The notes below the pieces were generated by a model, which saw nothing but the letters and a program-made list of their open reading frames with translations, did not search any database and was not told where the DNA came from. Shown piece by piece: positions 1 to 23,783 of a DNA stretch of 64,000 nucleotides. The stretch spans positions 1 to 64,000 of IMG/VR virus record IMGVR_UViG_3300045738_001212, one strand, 5' to 3'. Each line of letters opens with the position of its first letter. The stretch's first letter is position 1. The translations under genes were made by a program, and so were the position numbers. Source of the stretch: a virus.

Positions 1-149
1 ACTCCTTGCTCGTAAACTTTGACAACCTGAGAGAGGTTCGCCTTGTTGCCGGGGCAGGATACATTGTGGTCCTTTATTTTTCCTTCTAGAGCTTGAGCAA
101 GTCTGATCGAAAATTGGATCACCGGGTCTTGTTCTATGTTCTCTCTCAT
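1..149 (-). CDS. partial hypothetical protein, N-terminal 49 residues
   Basis: The reading frame starts at an ATG at 149 and stays open to the left edge, so only the N-terminus is present. It begins MRENIEQDPVIQF and holds one Cys-Pro-Gly motif. No Shine-Dalgarno is obvious before the ATG. It is divergent from the secreted-protein gene at 257, and the AT-rich 107-bp gap holds that gene's promoter. I do not recognise the family. Confidence 0.5.
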   Translation of the reverse strand, partial: MRENIEQDPVIQFSIRLAQALEGKIKDHNVSCPGNKANLSQVVKVYEQG

Positions 150-2645: not shown

Positions 2646-6551
<3,906 letters not shown>

Positions 6552-12095: not shown

Positions 12096-12734
12096 TTACG
12101 CTATTCCGCCTAAATATCTCCCCGTCTTAAAGAAATATTGCGATTTCAATGTCCCCGGCTCTGCTTTGTCTGCACTCCACTTGAGTCTTCCCTTGAAGAA
12201 TTCTCCTGTTTCAAAAGCCATTGTCCCCCCCATGTTATCTTTCTGTATACCAAGCAGATTCCCCTTGGAGGGGACATGTCCCACCACTAGCGGTTCATCC
12301 CAATCAATACCTTTTTGCTCTACCGCTGGTATCGTCCACCTATAGTATCCGACTTCCCTCATTGAGGGTTCATAGTTTCCGCTAACATACCACATAATAG
12401 ATGGCTCATCCCAATCCATTGAGTTTACCAACCCAGTTGGAGTTATCGACAATGAGGGATAATCTACCGATTCTCCCCTAATGAGCCCGGTCTGTTGGGC
12501 GTTAAAATGGAACCTATCGTGTACTAGCGGGATAAAATCCCCCGACGTAATTAAATTAAAATTTTGAAGTGGATAATCAAAATAAATTACATCACAATGT
12601 CCTGTAAAACCCCACCTTAAAGTCGGCCTATCTATTCCGTAGAAGAAGGTCTTCTGGACATCCGTACCAATGTACCTAGCATTGCTAATGCCTAGATGCT
12701 CAATCTGCTGGAGTTGATTGTACGGATGCCCCAT
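12096..12734 (-). CDS. putative structural protein, 212 aa
   Basis: It lies between the tubulin-like GTPase and the 1233-residue protein in the virion operon. The sequence is rich in aromatic residues and Gly, with DWDEP repeated (MDWDEPSIMWYVSG and IDWDEPLVVGHVPS), suggesting two related beta-rich segments. No signal peptide or TM helix is seen. By position it could be a tail, head-tail connector or decoration protein. I do not recognise the family. Confidence 0.55.
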   Translation of the reverse strand: MGHPYNQLQQIEHLGISNARYIGTDVQKTFFYGIDRPTLRWGFTGHCDVIYFDYPLQNFNLITSGDFIPLVHDRFHFNAQQTGLIRGESVDYPSLSITPTGLVNSMDWDEPSIMWYVSGNYEPSMREVGYYRWTIPAVEQKGIDWDEPLVVGHVPSKGNLLGIQKDNMGGTMAFETGEFFKGRLKWSADKAEPGTLKSQYFFKTGRYLGGIA

Positions 12735-12744
12735 ACGTTACCGT

Positions 12745-13908
12745 TTACATATCACCCAACTTAGCAAGCTCCTCCAGTTTAAGGCTTGGCCGAGCAAGTC
12801 CTCCAACTGCTGTGAACACTGTCAGGTTTGGTTTGTTTCCACTATAAATTCCACTATGAACAATATTTCCGGGCTTTAACATTCTGGAAAGTTGTTCGAA
12901 TGCCTGATCTAAATCTCTTTGAGGAATGTTATCTAGCTGCTCTTTCCCACCGATAACAACGGCAGCGGCGCAAGTGCCACTTGATAAGTCCAATCCTCCA
13001 GATAATAGATTGTTTTTTAGATTTTCCCTTACTGCTCTCGAAATGCTTACTGCATCTTTCCAGTCTGCTACGGGAGAAGCTCCAAATACAATACACCCCG
13101 AATCAAGAAGTGTTTCGTAATCCTTTTTATCGAAAGCTGAATAACTGCTATCCTTAGAAGCTGTAAGGTTGAATAAGTTAAATAACCCACACATACTCAT
13201 ATTTGCGGTTTGCCAAAAATTGGAAACAACAAGGTTGGGGTAAAGCTTGGTAATTTTTTCATTATCTAAAATGATAAGAGGAGACACAATCCCCTTGTCA
13301 ACAAGATCGAAAGCTTTCTTTAGCGTGTTGTGAGCGTTGGCGTTAACCTTTTTTCCTTCGGAAGCTTTAGGTAAAGCGAGAATAACTCCAACTTGTTTCG
13401 CGGAAGCTTTCACTGTCTCTTGGAGTTCCTTGGCCGCGTAAGCCAACGGCTCCATCATCCCTGCTCCAGAGCCGCCACCAGCACCAAGGCTAATAATGAT
13501 TCTGTCTAATTCTTCCCCGAAAGAGTACTTCATAAAATCGAGTACATCTTCAGACTTCTTGTTGAAAAGCTCCTCCGCTACCCTCGGGTCTTTTCCTGCT
13601 CCACCATCCCCAATACATAGTTTGTTTTCTATTAACTTGAGGGTGTTGAGGTCTTGCATGGCGGTGTTGATTGCCGCAGTTTTCCTGTATCCAAGTTGGT
13701 GAAATGTTTCCGCAATTCTTGATCCACCTTGTCCGGCACCAATGAAGGCGAATTTAAATGCTACATCAATTTCGTCCTTTATCTCTGTTTTTTTCTCCGG
13801 CTCTGGCTCTGGCATGGGAATGTCAGGCAGTGTAATGTCGATGTCTGCTTCCCCATACACGGCTTTAATTTGCTCGTCGTTTTGTTGCTCTTGATTTTCT
13901 TCGCTCAT
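12745..13908 (-). CDS. FtsZ/tubulin-family GTPase
   Basis: 387 residues. A 48-residue acidic, Pro-rich extension precedes a tubulin core. The nucleotide-binding start is FIGAGQGGSRIAETF (55-69) with AAINTAMQDL. The tubulin signature is GAGGGSGAG (142-150). The T7 catalytic loop is recognisable as FDKKDYETLLDSG, keeping the DxxD acidic pair (260, 263) seen in FtsZ as DFAD. Phage tubulins such as PhuZ and TubZ form filaments that position DNA or capsids. Here the gene starts 2 bases after the portal stop codon, with Shine-Dalgarno AAGGAG, inside the virion operon, which suggests late expression and a role tied to assembly. A cytoplasmic filament is inferred. Confidence 0.8.
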   Translation of the reverse strand: MSEENQEQQNDEQIKAVYGEADIDITLPDIPMPEPEPEKKTEIKDEIDVAFKFAFIGAGQGGSRIAETFHQLGYRKTAAINTAMQDLNTLKLIENKLCIGDGGAGKDPRVAEELFNKKSEDVLDFMKYSFGEELDRIIISLGAGGGSGAGMMEPLAYAAKELQETVKASAKQVGVILALPKASEGKKVNANAHNTLKKAFDLVDKGIVSPLIILDNEKITKLYPNLVVSNFWQTANMSMCGLFNLFNLTASKDSSYSAFDKKDYETLLDSGCIVFGASPVADWKDAVSISRAVRENLKNNLLSGGLDLSSGTCAAAVVIGGKEQLDNIPQRDLDQAFEQLSRMLKPGNIVHSGIYSGNKPNLTVFTAVGGLARPSLKLEELAKLGDM

Positions 13909-13910
13909 AG

Positions 13911-15953
13911 TTACTCCTTAATAATTGATTTTGACATATGCAAGATACTTGCGGCTTCAAGGTCCACATCGTGTTCGCAAGCTATGCTTTCTATTTCCTT
14001 AACTCTTTCTTTGTTTTTGTCTGTGGGGTCATCGCAATAATCTTTAGCTTTCTTGACCCAGTTTTTCGGTTTCTCGTTAGCCATTACGATATGGCTGATT
14101 TGTAGGGCTACTTCCTTTTGTTGTTTTGTTAATCTTTTAACGTCGTGCTTTTCTCTTAACACTTTTGAAACTTCTATTTCTAAATTCTGAGCCAAGACAT
14201 ACCCCTCTTTCACCTTTGACATGCAGTAACCTTCCTTACCTCCGATAGGTGTCATTTTTCTATCCGACTTGTAAGGAGCATTTTTCGTGCTGGATGGTCT
14301 TCCTGCTGGCTTGTTTACTTTTTGTCCACTAGGAGGAGGGGGTCCGGCTGGCCCTTGTGGTGCCTTAAGTTTTTCTCGTCCCATTTTTTCTTGAGACTTG
14401 AGGTTTTTATCCTGTAGGTCTTTTTGAACTTCTCCTTGTTTGTCTGCAAGTTCTTTCTGGGTTTCAGGTCCACCAGTGACAGGCTCGTAAAGACCCTTGT
14501 CTCTAAGTTTTTTAAATTCTTTTTGGGATTCTATAGACTCTTCATTAGTTGGTAGACGGTTGGTCTCAAGAGCCTTGATTGCCTCTTCTGGGGTTAAGAC
14601 CCCCAACTCAACGAGCCTTGTGTATATTCTTGAGGTCTCAGAATCAGTTTTTAACTCGAAGTCCTCGAAGTAAGGCACGGGAAAGTTTTTTAAACTGAGG
14701 CTTCTTGCTATGCGCTTGATTTCGGGTAACAAGAACTGATTAATAAAAGCTTGCCTACCTTGAGCTAGTCGAGAAATAAACACATCAACCTTGGCTGACT
14801 GATTTGCAAATTTTTCCCCTCCGACAAAGATATTGTTTAATCCAATATTAATATCACGATCAATGACTTCGTACTTTTTGGAATCCAATAGTGCTCCTAT
14901 TTGAGGAACAACAAATTCAGCCTTGGTGGTGTAGTCGGCAATCAGGACTCTACCCACGGACTCGTTTGAAAACAAATCCTGCATCTTTTTCAAGTTCTCG
15001 TGGTTTATTCCACCCTTCTCGGGCTCAGTGCCCATCGTGACGAGAAGAATCGCTTGTTGCATCGTTCTTGCAATCGCCATGTCCATTTTTTTCATCTCGT
15101 GTTTGAAGTTGATATCTTCAAGTACGGGATATCCCATTGGTACAGCGAACGGCTCGTAATCTTGCTTCTTGTAAAAAACCGCCGCGAGTTTCTTTGACTC
15201 TAGGGGGATGCTAAGGGAAACAGTTGAAGTTTTTCTCTTTAACAGTTTTTTCGATTCTTCATCTAGCGCATTGTAAACTTCCAAGTCCTCATCCGTCTTA
15301 GGGTTTCTAACTCTTTCAAGTTCGTAATCAGTAAGAACCTTGTAGTACTTTGCTTCTGAAAAATTTAAATTGCCGTGCATCTGAATGTCGGCAGGATTCA
15401 TAATTATGTAACGAGAAGGGATTGTCATTTCTTCCACTTCCATTTTTGGGAGATCGTCTTTCCCAAACGTTTGGGTAATTTTCTTTACGTCGTTCGGGGA
15501 AATCTTTGAATCATACCTATAGACAAAAACGTTTCCGCTCCGATAATACTCCCTGAAAAATCTATCCATCAAATCCCAAATATTAATTTTCTTAAAGTAA
15601 GCACTGAAGAAGTCTCTGGATTTTTTTGACCCTCCACGAAAGTATACGTTATTGACGGAGAACTCCGTCATGGTATCTATGATGTTCCTGAAGATAGCAA
15701 AATTATAATAACACTTTTGGCACAAGACGACAGCTTCCCTAATGGAAATGCTTGATTTCCCATACCCCTTGGTCGTCTTAAAGGGAACTAGCCCGTCGTC
15801 GATATTTTTAAATCTATCCGTTCTTTCTATGACCCCGGCGAGATTCCTTCTGGACGTGGTGACATTAGCGGAACCATACGCCATGAGAGGCTCTGATGGC
15901 AGAGCTTTTTTAGTCCCCCTTCTCGTCGTCGTCTTTTTCTTTTGTGCGGCCAT
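13911..15953 (-). CDS. portal protein
   Basis: The 680-residue soluble protein lies next-but-one downstream of the terminase, the usual portal position. It has a basic N-terminus (KKKTTTRRGTKK), a central alpha/beta region (FFREYYRSGNVFVYRYD, SRYIIMNPADI, IFVGGEKFANQSAKVDVFISRL) typical of portal stems and clips, and a Gln/Lys/Pro-rich C-terminal tail. FxxEYYxSGNVFVYR resembles the conserved portal segment of many tailed phages. The C-terminal 100 residues (KEGYVLAQNLEIEVSKVLREKHD) may form a separate helical appendage. No strong Shine-Dalgarno is seen before ATG 15953. Confidence 0.7.
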   Translation of the reverse strand: MAAQKKKTTTRRGTKKALPSEPLMAYGSANVTTSRRNLAGVIERTDRFKNIDDGLVPFKTTKGYGKSSISIREAVVLCQKCYYNFAIFRNIIDTMTEFSVNNVYFRGGSKKSRDFFSAYFKKINIWDLMDRFFREYYRSGNVFVYRYDSKISPNDVKKITQTFGKDDLPKMEVEEMTIPSRYIIMNPADIQMHGNLNFSEAKYYKVLTDYELERVRNPKTDEDLEVYNALDEESKKLLKRKTSTVSLSIPLESKKLAAVFYKKQDYEPFAVPMGYPVLEDINFKHEMKKMDMAIARTMQQAILLVTMGTEPEKGGINHENLKKMQDLFSNESVGRVLIADYTTKAEFVVPQIGALLDSKKYEVIDRDINIGLNNIFVGGEKFANQSAKVDVFISRLAQGRQAFINQFLLPEIKRIARSLSLKNFPVPYFEDFELKTDSETSRIYTRLVELGVLTPEEAIKALETNRLPTNEESIESQKEFKKLRDKGLYEPVTGGPETQKELADKQGEVQKDLQDKNLKSQEKMGREKLKAPQGPAGPPPPSGQKVNKPAGRPSSTKNAPYKSDRKMTPIGGKEGYCMSKVKEGYVLAQNLEIEVSKVLREKHDVKRLTKQQKEVALQISHIVMANEKPKNWVKKAKDYCDDPTDKNKERVKEIESIACEHDVDLEAASILHMSKSIIKE

Positions 15954-15959
15954 GATTTT

Positions 15960-19136
<3,177 letters not shown>

Positions 19137-19208: not shown

Positions 19209-21044
19209 TCAATTAATCATTATTGGGGTAAAGGTGCTACTCTCTGATTCTCCCCGTTTTGACATCATATCGAAGTAAAGTTTCGTTGACCAAGTTCCCA
19301 GCATTAGCGTCGTATAATTATCTTTTCTTGCCCTTGTGGACGACGTGCTTTTCTTTAAATGTAACGGTAAATCAAAGGTTTGATTGCCTCTAGCGGTAGT
19401 TTTGACCTCTACCAAGGCACATTGCCTTTTCGTCTGATACATTAGGTCATCCTGTGTTTCCGCTAGTTCTAGGAGGGTTTCAGCGTTTAGCAAATTGGTG
19501 TCTACATAGGTACTTATGGCTTTATCGAAAGCTTGTCCGTGAGCCGTGACCCTTGAAGCGAACCAGACCCTCTTATAGTCGATACACGCCTTTAAGTGTT
19601 CGTTTGCTTTCCTGATGAAATTACTTGTGAAGACCTGTTTGATGCACTTTTTCCCTGATTCTCTGTTGTATTGATATCTAGCCTTTCGGAGGGCTTGTTC
19701 GTAGTCTAGTCCTTCTGCGTCTGAATCGAAATCAAAAAACTCTAATTTAATTTTATCCTTTTTAAAATATTTACTTTCATTAGCACTGTCAATAAATTGA
19801 TAACCAGCGTTGTCTATCATTATTAATTCGAAATTAAAAAATTTATTTAAATAATAAAAATATTTGATATGATCCTTTAAATGTCCTCCCGCTACCGCGT
19901 ATCCATGAACCAAGGTGCATTGCTGTTTTTCTTCATCAAGTTCCATGACTGACATAGCAAAGTAGTCAGAGCTTGGGCTATCGCTAAACGAAGGATCAAT
20001 CGCTAAGACGTATTTTAAACCTCTCCTGCCACTGATCCTAGTCGTAGGCTCCTCGCCATCAGGGATGGTGCATTCGTGCATTTTCTTTGCGCTATAATAG
20101 CTATCGCTTCCATCAGTGAAAAGAGCGCAATACTCCCTCTGAAAACTTGAATGACTTTGCCCACCCTCTTGGGCCTCTTCGATAATTGTTCTATCAATCA
20201 TATGCTTGGGCAACGCTTCGTAACCCATTTGAGAAATAAAATAAGTAGCCCCTGCTTTCCCTATTTTTTCTCCGTAAATTTTATCCATCCACTCTTTGTA
20301 GGTTTTAAACAAGTTTTCGAAGGTGTAACTAGCAGAAGAAAGAGCTATCAATTTACTGTCGTTCTCGAAGACCATTCTGTCTTCTTCCCTCATGTCTCCT
20401 CTGTCGATGAGCTTGTCTTCTATCTCTCTAATCTCCAGCCTCTCCTTGATGTTTTGAGGAGCAACCAAGAACGGCATAAGGACAGTCTTAATTATCTCCT
20501 CTGGAAGCAGTAAGTACTCGTCCAATACAAGAACGTTGGCGCGAAAACCCCTAATCTTTTCACCACTAAGCGGAATGGCCGTAATGGACCCACCGTTGAT
20601 AAGCCATTCATACTGGTCGTTACGTTTGGATTTCGCGCCAAAAGCTTGCATGAGAAGTTCCGCGCCTCTACTGTCATAAATTTTTTCAATATTATTAAAT
20701 ATAAAACGAGCGGTACGGAACGTCGGGCCAGCAACTAAGATTTTTGTGTTGGGTTCGAAAATAGTTTGTAAAATAGAAAAGACAGAAGCGATAAAAGTCT
20801 TACCACAACCACGTCCCCATACGCACATGCTGAAATTTCTATTGAATAAGGCTTTCAAGGTGACTTCTTGGTATGGAGCCAACTTAATCCCGGTGAGAAG
20901 CTCGGTAGTAAAATAAACATTCTTCCTCAAAAATTTAGCCAAGCTAATTTTCGCCTCATTATCTTCTAGTTGCCCCTTCAACTTTAGGAGTTCCTCGTTA
21001 AAGTCCGGGATCGTTTTCTCGTATTTTTTGGGGCAATACCACAT
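19209..21044 (-). CDS. terminase large subunit
   Basis: 611 residues. The ATPase half carries Walker A WGRGCGKTF (about 75-83), Walker B VLVLDEY (about 171-177) and a coupling-like SSASYTFENLF segment. The C-terminal half begins LAIDPSFSDSPSSDYFAM, the RNase H-like nuclease strand with its first catalytic Asp, followed by LIMIDNAG with a further Asp. Length and domain order are those of a packaging motor ATPase-nuclease. It sits immediately downstream of the ERCC4-nuclease gene, one base after its stop. It translocates DNA into the prohead through the portal encoded two genes on. Confidence 0.9.
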   Translation of the reverse strand: MWYCPKKYEKTIPDFNEELLKLKGQLEDNEAKISLAKFLRKNVYFTTELLTGIKLAPYQEVTLKALFNRNFSMCVWGRGCGKTFIASVFSILQTIFEPNTKILVAGPTFRTARFIFNNIEKIYDSRGAELLMQAFGAKSKRNDQYEWLINGGSITAIPLSGEKIRGFRANVLVLDEYLLLPEEIIKTVLMPFLVAPQNIKERLEIREIEDKLIDRGDMREEDRMVFENDSKLIALSSASYTFENLFKTYKEWMDKIYGEKIGKAGATYFISQMGYEALPKHMIDRTIIEEAQEGGQSHSSFQREYCALFTDGSDSYYSAKKMHECTIPDGEEPTTRISGRRGLKYVLAIDPSFSDSPSSDYFAMSVMELDEEKQQCTLVHGYAVAGGHLKDHIKYFYYLNKFFNFELIMIDNAGYQFIDSANESKYFKKDKIKLEFFDFDSDAEGLDYEQALRKARYQYNRESGKKCIKQVFTSNFIRKANEHLKACIDYKRVWFASRVTAHGQAFDKAISTYVDTNLLNAETLLELAETQDDLMYQTKRQCALVEVKTTARGNQTFDLPLHLKKSTSSTRARKDNYTTLMLGTWSTKLYFDMMSKRGESESSTFTPIMIN

Positions 21045-21045
21045 G

Positions 21046-21987
21046 CTAAAGTTTCTTTAAGTCGTAAGCTAACTGAAGGTCAATCTTCTCGTGGAGACAA
21101 CCAGAGAAAAAAATCTTCTTAATTATTCTAGATGATTCTTCTCGGTTTTTAACAAATAAAAATTGAACATGAGGATACTTCTGGATAAGAGACCTTACGT
21201 TACGAAAGATAAATTCAGGAGTAACTCGTATCTTTTTTGATATGTAAGGAAGATACTTAAACGAAAGAGCGTTGCTCAACGTGTCTTCTACCAAAACAAC
21301 CAAGTAGATTTCCTCTTCTTTGGCTCTTTGAATTTCCCTTTCGAACCTGTCGAAATTTTTAACGCTCAAAGTAGAAATAAAATCGGATAAAGATTTTCTT
21401 TCTATATGGCAATTGCAAGTAACGCTAGGGTCACTCAGTGCGTAGTCTCCAGCCTTTAACGTTTTGGGCTCGCTAGGCCAATCAAAATCCAAGGGAAGCT
21501 GTTCTCTGGTATCGATATAAATTACGTAGTCATCCTTGTTGTAAGCAGCCCCCGTCATAATTTCTCCAAATTTATTATGCTTACTCTTCAGGCCCAGCTT
21601 TTCACATAGCTCATAGTAATCTCCAAACAATGAATCATAATAATAAACAGGCGGGAACATGAGTGTCCTCAGTTCGACCTGTGATGGAGCGTAAACGAGC
21701 TTCTTAGCGACTTTTCTGGCCTTGAGGAGGTTTATACTGTACTTTTTCGCATCGTCCTCTGGAGCCTCCTTGAGCCACATTTTCAAGTTTGTACGAGAAT
21801 TAAAATCAGTAGCAAAATACTGTTCCTTATTTTTAAATTTTATGAACTTACCATCGTAGAGGTCATGCCTTGGGTGGTATTGCTGATAGTATTCAGCTAT
21901 GCGAAGACTGTGAGCCTTCAGGTGTCTGTGAAGGCTCTTGCTGTCTTGGAATTCTTTTTCACAGACCTTACAAGAAACACTATCCAT
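21046..21987 (-). CDS. C2H2 zinc-finger plus ERCC4-type nuclease
   Basis: 313 residues. Residues 6-25 form a C2H2 finger (CKVCEKEF..SLHRHLKAH). The C-terminal half carries the ERCC4/XPF-family nuclease signature: IDTREQLPLDF, KAGDYAL and IERKSLSDFIST (the DxxE...ERKxxxD metal site), then FDRFEREIQRAKE. XPF-family nucleases cut branched or junction DNA. Placement between an unknown gene and the large terminase suggests a role in resolving DNA before packaging, or site-specific cutting guided by the finger; both are inferences. Its start overlaps the end of the 371-residue gene by 8 bases. Confidence 0.8.
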   Translation of the reverse strand: MDSVSCKVCEKEFQDSKSLHRHLKAHSLRIAEYYQQYHPRHDLYDGKFIKFKNKEQYFATDFNSRTNLKMWLKEAPEDDAKKYSINLLKARKVAKKLVYAPSQVELRTLMFPPVYYYDSLFGDYYELCEKLGLKSKHNKFGEIMTGAAYNKDDYVIYIDTREQLPLDFDWPSEPKTLKAGDYALSDPSVTCNCHIERKSLSDFISTLSVKNFDRFEREIQRAKEEEIYLVVLVEDTLSNALSFKYLPYISKKIRVTPEFIFRNVRSLIQKYPHVQFLFVKNREESSRIIKKIFFSGCLHEKIDLQLAYDLKKL

Positions 21988-23096: not shown

Positions 23097-23783
23097 TTAA
23101 AGAAATTCTATATCGCCCTTTTCTATTAATTTCTTAATCTTTTTAACGATGGTTTTTTTAATGTTCTGAATTTGTTTGTATCCCGGACTTCTTTTTTTCT
23201 CAGACGTTTTAAAACCTAATTTCTTCGCTACGGTAAGTTCGTTCTCTTTTTCTATAAATAGGGACTCATAAACCAATAATTCAGTTGGCTTTAGTATTTC
23301 CTTCATCTTCTCCGTAAGTTGTTCTATTTTCGCATCGTAGTCAATGTAATCATCGAATATGGTGTTGACCTCTTGGTGGTGGTTCTCTAAAGAGAGGGGC
23401 ATCTTCAAGTTGTAGGCATTCTGTTTTCTTTTTTCCCAATGAGCATACAAAGGGCATTCGTTACATTGAGTGGTGTAAATGCGGCATCCACCATCTCCTT
23501 CCTCCGCTGCACATCGTAAACAGGGACGAGTGTAGTTGGTGTAGTTATTGCGAATTATGTTTTTAAGCTGATTCGATATGACTCTATTCAGCCAAGGCTG
23601 GATCGGTTTGTCGGAGTCATACTTCTCCCATTTTTCATATATATGGATACGAATGATTTGAGCTACATCTTCAAAGTCAATCCAAGATAGAGAAGTTAGA
23701 TTCCATTTCCCTCTTCTCTTGGCGATCTCTTGATCGATGATCCCAATGCAGTCTTCGAAACTAGGTTTTTTCTTCTTTGCCAA
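23097..23783 (-). CDS. RNA polymerase sigma-70-like factor with a zinc-binding insert
   Basis: 228 residues. A region-2-like block (WIDFEDVAQIIRIHIYEKWEKYD...WLNRVISNQLKNIIRNN) is followed by a Cys cluster (RPCLRC, then GGCRIY, then TQCNECPLY) that could bind zinc. A C-terminal region-4-like helix-turn-helix follows (LKPTELLVYESLFI...ELTVAKKLGF...GYKQIQNIKKTI). It overlaps the end of the zinc-ribbon gene by 23 bases at the head of the late operon. It is a good candidate for redirecting host RNA polymerase to the AAGTGTAAT promoters, though no -35-like partner for that element was found. Confidence 0.75.
   Translation of the reverse strand: MAKKKKPSFEDCIGIIDQEIAKRRGKWNLTSLSWIDFEDVAQIIRIHIYEKWEKYDSDKPIQPWLNRVISNQLKNIIRNNYTNYTRPCLRCAAEEGDGGCRIYTTQCNECPLYAHWEKRKQNAYNLKMPLSLENHHQEVNTIFDDYIDYDAKIEQLTEKMKEILKPTELLVYESLFIEKENELTVAKKLGFKTSEKKRSPGYKQIQNIKKTIVKKIKKLIEKGDIEFL

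What the first reader, a model, noticed from the sequence alone, without database searches (positions are those of the whole stretch)
12745..13908. Phage tubulin/FtsZ homologue inside the virion operon, right after the portal
A GAGGGSGAG signature and a DxxD T7 loop are present. Characterised phage tubulins (PhuZ, TubZ) position phage nuclei or plasmids and are not usually tucked 2 bases behind a portal gene. The acidic, Pro-rich 48-residue N-terminal extension is also unusual. Late co-expression suggests capsid or DNA trafficking.
Basis: partly seen in the sequence, partly recalled or inferred. Interest (0 to 1): 0.75.

Follow-up and report, generated by a model that had tools for sequence, protein, structure and literature searches.

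The report
Phage tubulin beside the portal gene
An uncultured tailed phage, and more than a hundred related virus contigs, carry their own intact tubulin-like protein right behind the gene for the DNA-packaging portal; it forms a separate family from known phage tubulins and probably builds filaments late in infection to help place capsids or the packaging site.

Summary
Confirmed. On the minus strand, 12745-13908 encodes a 387-aa tubulin/FtsZ-superfamily protein (Pfam Tubulin above cut-off; AlphaFold2 model matches plasmid TubZ at Z 35.9 over 332 residues), 2 bases behind a gene whose fold matches phage portals. All GTP-binding loops and both T7 aspartates are conserved in 98 unique relatives, so a GTPase/polymer cycle is under selection. 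The family ('TUB') is a 100%-supported clade, outside FtsZ and PhuZ and nearest to TubZ (deep placement unresolved). It has no detectable relative in 50,697 GenBank phage records. Of 135 loci, 104 have the portal immediately upstream and 16 have one gene between. A portal-seeded control shows TUB is accessory: 17 of 80 loci have it, and 18 of 18 TUB-less records lack any tubulin; presence is clustered on the portal tree and TUB co-diverges with the portal. Two T4-like phage groups carry TUB elsewhere, one with a T4-type late promoter upstream. I found no TubR-like neighbour, iterons, integrase, multi-subunit RNAP or chimallin (that last test is weak). Best reading: a late, GTP-driven filament acting on capsids or packaging in phages without a recognised nucleus or partition system. 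Filaments and cargo are inferred, not shown. New variant of a known kind.

The parts
12745..13908 (-). TUB: tubulin/FtsZ-superfamily GTPase, 387 aa, TubZ-like fold
   Evidence: PF00091 1.4e-9; AF2 pLDDT 83.5; TubZ 2xka Z 35.9, 332 aligned
13765..13908 (-). N-terminal acidic arm, residues 1-48, predicted disordered at least over residues 1-33
   Evidence: pLDDT under 50 for residues 1-33; 16 D/E, 4 K/R, 5 P
13810..13839 (-). Conserved linear motif in the arm, D24-x3-P28-D29-I30-x2-P33
   Evidence: 97/96/94/91/100% conserved in 98 unique sequences while neighbouring residues vary
13714..13743 (-). T1 loop IGAGQGGSRI, residues 56-65
   Evidence: conserved columns
13459..13488 (-). T4 tubulin signature LGAGGGSGAG, residues 141-150
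   Evidence: conserved columns
13120..13131 (-). T7 catalytic loop D260-K-K-D263
   Evidence: both aspartates conserved in 100% of 98 unique sequences
13911..15953 (-). Portal protein, 680 aa, 2 bases upstream of TUB
   Evidence: Foldseek: all 23 hits with E<1e-3 are phage portal/neck entries
15960..19136 (-). Collagen-like (GxTG repeat) protein between terminase and portal
   Evidence: reading of the sequence; replaced by unrelated genes in other relatives
19209..21044 (-). Terminase large subunit
   Evidence: PHROG 2, 1.9e-22; PF03237 5e-6
21046..21987 (-). ERCC4-type nuclease with zinc finger, conserved neighbour
   Evidence: PF02732 2.5e-11; synteny
23097..23783 (-). Phage sigma factor at the head of the same gene run
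   Evidence: PF04542 3.6e-7; synteny
12096..12734 (-). 212-aa gene just downstream of TUB; not a constant partner
   Evidence: downstream genes fall into 11 unrelated families in 103 loci
3..149 (-). Start of the next head-module gene, cut by the end of the record (homologue of the 201-aa gene before scaffold/major capsid genes in L019)
   Evidence: blastp 32% over 44 aa, E 5.6e-5

Best explanation
TUB is a phage-encoded, GTP-dependent filament-forming tubulin of a distinct TubZ-related family. It is made late, together with terminase, portal and capsid proteins, and its filaments position or move capsids (or the packaging site or replicated DNA) in the infected cell. The conserved motif in its flexible N-terminal arm is the likely attachment point for a cargo or anchor, a job done by C-terminal tails in TubZ and FtsZ. 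Shown: homology, fold, conservation of all nucleotide and catalytic loops, gene context, vertical inheritance with the portal. Inferred: polymer formation (from conservation), late expression (from gene order and a promoter-like box in one group), capsid/packaging cargo (from the portal neighbourhood and the PhuZ precedent), motif as binding site.
For: Full TubZ-type fold. Conservation of N81, N216, T4 glycines and T7 D260/D263 and enrichment of conserved columns in T loops. Low dN relative to the portal (0.052 against 0.099; dS saturated, so ratios are rough). TUB behind the portal in 120 of 135 loci, 104 of them with no gene between, gap -17 to +11 nt. Mantel r 0.78 between portal and TUB distances and only 4 changes of TUB presence on the portal tree against 23.8 shuffled: long co-inheritance with the head module. 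TATAAATA 33-36 nt upstream of TUB in 4 of 4 loci of a T4-like group, where chance is about 0.4% per locus from the site density. Precedent: PhuZ filaments carry capsids by treadmilling and raise yield although not essential (PMC12908238; PMC13282480).
Against: No polymer, GTPase or localisation data. TUB is accessory: most of the portal-seeded loci lack it and long TUB-less records have no tubulin, so head assembly does not require it. In two T4-like groups TUB lies outside the head genes. The region behind the portal is a variable slot that also holds fibre-like, collagen-like and unknown genes, so the neighbourhood could be a cargo slot rather than a functional tie. No conserved partner gene follows TUB. 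The TATAAATA loci are related and the total number of such boxes is not above chance.
Confidence: 0.5

Rival explanations
1. TubZ-type DNA segregation: TUB partitions a plasmid-like phage genome in a carrier or pseudolysogenic state, as in phage c-st.
For: Nearest family is TubZ (tree 96/83; TubZ folds rank first; the TubZ-like C-terminal domain PF22453 is above cut-off in relatives L154 and L159).
Against: The gene upstream is the portal, not a small TubR-like gene as in the plasmid TubZ loci and in L162/L163; no iteron array near TUB, tandem repeats are nearly all in collagen-like coding sequence; no tyrosine integrase in 10 records; co-directional with head genes. Records may be incomplete.
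Confidence: 0.15
2. Capsid-assembly or portal-vertex factor: TUB acts as a GTP-switch chaperone or nucleator on the portal or prohead (or is a virion part) without long filaments.
For: Tight coupling to the portal and co-divergence with it; conserved linear motif in a disordered arm.
Against: T7 loop aspartates, which act only across a subunit contact in the superfamily, are conserved in 100%; most members of the lineage assemble heads without it; T4-like relatives carry it away from the portal.
Confidence: 0.15
3. Host cell-division antagonist: TUB co-assembles with or poisons host FtsZ, or occupies FtsZ partners, to block division or control cell shape.
For: Same superfamily; the arm motif P-D-I-P in most members resembles the D-I-P core of the FtsZ C-terminal peptide.
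Against: The P of that core is only 71% conserved and the F-L that follows it in FtsZ tails is absent (FtsZ tail in the alignment); late gene position; full GTPase cycle conserved although a poison would not need it; host unknown.
Confidence: 0.1
4. Recent acquisition of a host FtsZ with no phage role.
For: None beyond superfamily membership.
Against: FtsZ is a separate clade at 100/99 with a long branch; FtsZ equivalog score 56 against 295; no relative found in 84,980 genomes by seed search; old co-divergence with the portal.
Confidence: 0.01

Closest known systems
TubZ of Bacillus plasmids (and of Clostridium phage c-st)
   Same: Best sequence and fold match (4ei7 E 1.3e-12; 2xka Z 35.9 over 332 residues; c-st TubZ 4xcq Z 32.0); sister clade in the tree (96/83); same T loops.
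   Different: About 20% identity; no TubR-like upstream gene, no iterons; gene lies in the packaging/head run; short C-terminus without the long basic tail, acidic N-terminal arm instead. The deep placement is not settled (AU test does not reject a TUB+FtsZ grouping, p 0.51).
PhuZ of nucleus-forming jumbo phages (Chimalliviridae)
   Same: Phage-encoded tubulin; PhuZ moves capsids to the packaging site (literature).
   Different: Very distant (PHROG PhuZ E 0.051; separate 100/100 clade); no multi-subunit RNAP and no chimallin match in these records (chimallin search has limited reach); PhuZ is not beside a portal in 201phi2-1.
Bacterial/archaeal FtsZ
   Same: Superfamily fold, T loops and DxxD T7 loop; Z about 31.
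   Different: Far under the FtsZ equivalog cut-off; no C-terminal conserved peptide; separate clade.
BFVD entry A0A6J5RW92, 'FtsZ Cell division GTPase' of an uncultured Caudovirales phage
   Same: Closest viral structure, Foldseek E 2.7e-30, 27% identity over 395 columns; probably a distant relative like locus L159.
   Different: Annotated automatically as FtsZ; no study of it was found; not tested for portal neighbourhood.

Membership tests
Tubulin/FtsZ superfamily | Pfam Tubulin GTPase domain over the curated cut-off | tested here: met
   38.9 bits against 33; all 12 records searched over the cut-off
Tubulin/FtsZ superfamily | T4 G-box signature and T7 catalytic aspartate(s) | tested here: met
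   GAGGGSGAG; D260 and D263 100% in 98 unique sequences
Tubulin/FtsZ superfamily | GTP-dependent polymerisation | not testable with these tools
   needs biochemistry
TubZ (TubZRC partition) | TubZ-type fold / C-terminal domain | tested here: inconclusive
   TubZ ranks first by fold, PF22453 over cut-off in L154 and L159 but under it in the window protein
TubZ (TubZRC partition) | Adjacent small DNA-binding TubR gene | tested here: not met
   upstream gene is the portal or another large gene in 120 of 135 loci; small upstream gene present in plasmid TubZ loci
TubZ (TubZRC partition) | tubC/tubS iteron array | tested here: not met
   no iteron-like array beside the gene in window 1-30000; rest of genome not scanned
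PhuZ / nucleus-forming phages | Groups with PhuZ in phylogeny | tested here: not met
   PhuZ 100/100 apart; AU test for TUB+PhuZ p 0.09, so the deep root stays open
PhuZ / nucleus-forming phages | Chimallin in the same genome | tested here: inconclusive
   no match in 10 records, but the same search also missed 2 of 4 tubulin-bearing jumbo-phage controls
PhuZ / nucleus-forming phages | Phage multi-subunit RNA polymerase | tested here: inconclusive
   PF04997 absent in 10 records; no jumbo-phage control was run and records may be incomplete
FtsZ | FtsZ equivalog score (TIGR00065) | tested here: not met
   56.2 bits against 295.2
FtsZ | C-terminal linker and conserved peptide | tested here: not met
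   protein ends 12-16 residues after the last strand; no such peptide in the alignment

The most novel reading that the evidence does not exclude
A third kind of phage tubulin: a TubZ-derived cytoskeleton redeployed from DNA partition to capsid or packaging-site positioning, inherited with the head module of a widespread uncultured tailed-phage lineage that has neither a recognised phage nucleus nor a partition cassette, and shared with T4-like phages.
Probability: 0.4. Interest if true: 0.8.

Novelty: new variant of a known kind. Interest (0 to 1): 0.62.

Why it matters
Characterised phage tubulins fall into two settings: plasmid-prophage partition (TubZ) and the nucleus-forming jumbo phages (PhuZ). 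A conserved tubulin inherited with the portal in phages of ordinary large size would show that cytoskeletal organisation of assembly is not tied to a phage nucleus, and would make it testable whether capsid transport or packaging-site positioning by filaments arose more than once. It also gives a genetic marker (TUB present or absent in close relatives) for comparing phages with and without it.

Tried and rejected
FtsZ acquisition: rejected by tree and equivalog score. PhuZ-style nucleus phage: no chimallin or multi-subunit RNAP found, the first test being weak. TubZRC: no small upstream gene, repeats or integrase. Core gene of the lineage: first suggested by TUB-seeded loci, rejected by the portal-seeded control. 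FtsZ-tail mimicry by the arm motif: P31 only 71% conserved and no F-L after it, left as a weak lead. Dedicated downstream partner: 11 unrelated families. Sigma-70 promoter and terminator scan of the operon: counts near chance. Relatives in genome contigs: none by seed patterns, which find close relatives only. E. coli FtsZ as a seed in viral contigs: nothing. Literature: no paper on this family found; one cited paper on chimallin- and PhuZ-encoding phage diversity (BMC Genomics 2025, PMC12625630) was not held, so prior notice cannot be excluded. AU tests leave the deep position of TUB between TubZ and FtsZ open. Habitat and host of the contigs could not be determined with the tools used.

Full report
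1. Observation. The ORF lies on the minus strand; the frame on the plus strand is closed. The protein hits Pfam Tubulin above the curated cut-off, FtsZ TIGR00065 only weakly (56 of 295 bits), PHROG PhuZ marginally, and TubZ and FtsZ in the PDB. With a 28-row alignment AlphaFold2 gives pLDDT 83.5 with a complete GTPase domain, H7, and a C-terminal activation domain. Foldseek puts TubZ first; VIA-align gives TubZ 2xka 35.9 (332 residues, 2.5 A), CetZ2 35.5, c-st TubZ 32.0 and FtsZ about 31; values within 1 are ties, so the fold does not separate TubZ from CetZ.

2. Is the neighbour a portal? No family model hits it. The AlphaFold2 model is poor overall (pLDDT 58), yet all 23 Foldseek matches with E<1e-3 are phage portal or neck/connector entries. 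Its place after terminase fits. The downstream head genes are visible in relatives: a weak capsid match (PF25209, 0.0013) for the 389-aa gene and a ClpP-type head protease (PHROG 94, 8e-50). The window's record (157,997 bp) ends just before these genes: its first 150 bases hold the start of the gene that precedes them in L019.

3. Distribution. The TUB search found 67 close relatives in IMG/VR and at least 199 with an alignment, none in 50,697 GenBank phage records and none by seed search in 84,980 genomes. Loci share the order PhoH - sigma - 371 aa - ERCC4 - terminase - (variable) - portal - TUB - (variable) - scaffold-like - 213 aa - capsid-like. Across 135 loci, 104 have the portal immediately upstream with gaps of -17 to +11 nt, 16 have one gene of about 435 aa between, 15 are other contexts.

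4. Control without selection on TUB. Eighteen TUB-less records, up to 133.6 kb, hold no tubulin at all. So TUB is accessory. On a portal tree of 98 rows TUB presence needs 4 changes against 23.8 for shuffled labels, and TUB and portal distances correlate (Mantel r 0.78, 0 of 2000 permutations). TUB is therefore an old resident with few losses or gains. In L221 and L230 it sits in front of the portal, in L200, L217 and L233 after an inserted gene.

5. Other contexts. L055, L063-L065 are T4-like (terminase PHROG 5989 4e-56, tail tube, gp32-type SSB) and L153-L157/L160 are another such group (SbcC-type subunit 7e-85); TUB there lies away from terminase and tail genes and is often transcribed against its neighbours. 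In L055 and L063-L065 the box TATAAATA lies 33-36 nt before the TUB start in 4 of 4, and similar boxes precede a 1065-aa and a tube gene. The density of such boxes overall is at chance, so only the conserved position counts. L159 carries a 538-aa divergent member with a 140-aa N-terminal extension and a basic tail. L162/L163 carry TubZ-type proteins with a small gene directly upstream, the expected partition arrangement.

6. Phylogeny. With 43 rows, TUB is one clade (100/99), joined by L159 (96/95), then by the TubZ-Bc/Alicyclobacillus clade (96/83); FtsZ (100/99) and PhuZ (100/100) are separate. An AU test does not reject TUB+FtsZ as one side (p 0.51), nor TUB+PhuZ at 5% (p 0.09). So 'distinct family, nearest to TubZ' is fair, 'derived from TubZ' is not proven. 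'Recent host FtsZ' is excluded by FtsZ monophyly.

7. Function. Shown: every nucleotide and catalytic loop is conserved, with conserved columns enriched in T loops (P 1e-9). T7 aspartates act on the GTP of the neighbouring subunit in this superfamily (established knowledge), so their conservation implies a polymer. The arm is predicted disordered yet carries D24-x3-P28-D29-I30-x2-P33 and D45 at 91-100%, which I read as a binding motif (inference). No downstream gene is constant (11 families in 103 loci). Against partition: no TubR-like neighbour, repeats or integrase. Against a nucleus: no multi-subunit RNAP; chimallin not found, though that search misses distant chimallins. The PhuZ literature provides the only demonstrated case of a phage tubulin moving capsids (PMC12908238, PMC13282480), and a review already suggested that moving large capsids and tails may be why phages keep filaments (PMC7950403). 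I therefore favour late filaments acting on capsids or the packaging site (0.5), over partition (0.15), an assembly factor (0.15) and host-division interference (0.1); the rest is unassigned.

8. Novelty. Known phage tubulins are c-st TubZ and PhuZ. One uncultured-phage protein in BFVD (A0A6J5RW92, 27% identity) shows that distant members are already in databases under the name FtsZ. I found no paper on this family, but one relevant 2025 paper could not be read. I rate it a new variant of a known kind.

Noticed in passing
window 1-149 and end of record: The 157,997-bp record breaks inside the head module; scaffold-like, 213-aa and capsid-like genes of relatives are missing from it.
   Followed up: partly
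L071:14337-15065 (record about 94.3-95.1 kb): Homologue (61%) of the ClpP-type head protease that lies just downstream of TUB in relatives such as L017; in this phage it sits far from the head genes.
   Followed up: no
L071:1130-2608 (record about 81.1-82.6 kb): TnpB/IS605 OrfB-like gene (PF07282 1.9e-17, PF01385 5e-15).
   Followed up: no
window 2646-6551 and 15960-19136: Two very long collagen-like (GxTG repeat) proteins; the one between terminase and portal is replaced by other genes in relatives.
   Followed up: no
L073:3552-6128 and 1581-2936: Phage-encoded bacterial-type DNA polymerase III alpha (PF07733 6.5e-54) with a separate PHP-domain protein nearby.
   Followed up: no
L159:9584-11200: 538-aa divergent phage tubulin with a 140-aa N-terminal extension and a basic C-terminal tail, between a nucleotidyltransferase-like gene and large structural-looking genes.
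   Followed up: partly
L162:9730-11014 and L163:9739-11008: TubZ-type gene directly behind an 83-86-aa gene at the end of a tail-like operon: looks like a TubRZ cassette in a phage.
   Followed up: partly
L221 and L230: TUB lies between terminase and portal instead of behind the portal.
   Followed up: no
L010-L017, L075-L082, L166-L238: A family of about 435-aa proteins (X436) occupies the slot behind the portal in many TUB-less and some TUB-bearing phages; function unknown.
   Followed up: no
L072:10752-11888: SET-domain protein (PF00856 1.7e-8) in the phage genome.
   Followed up: no
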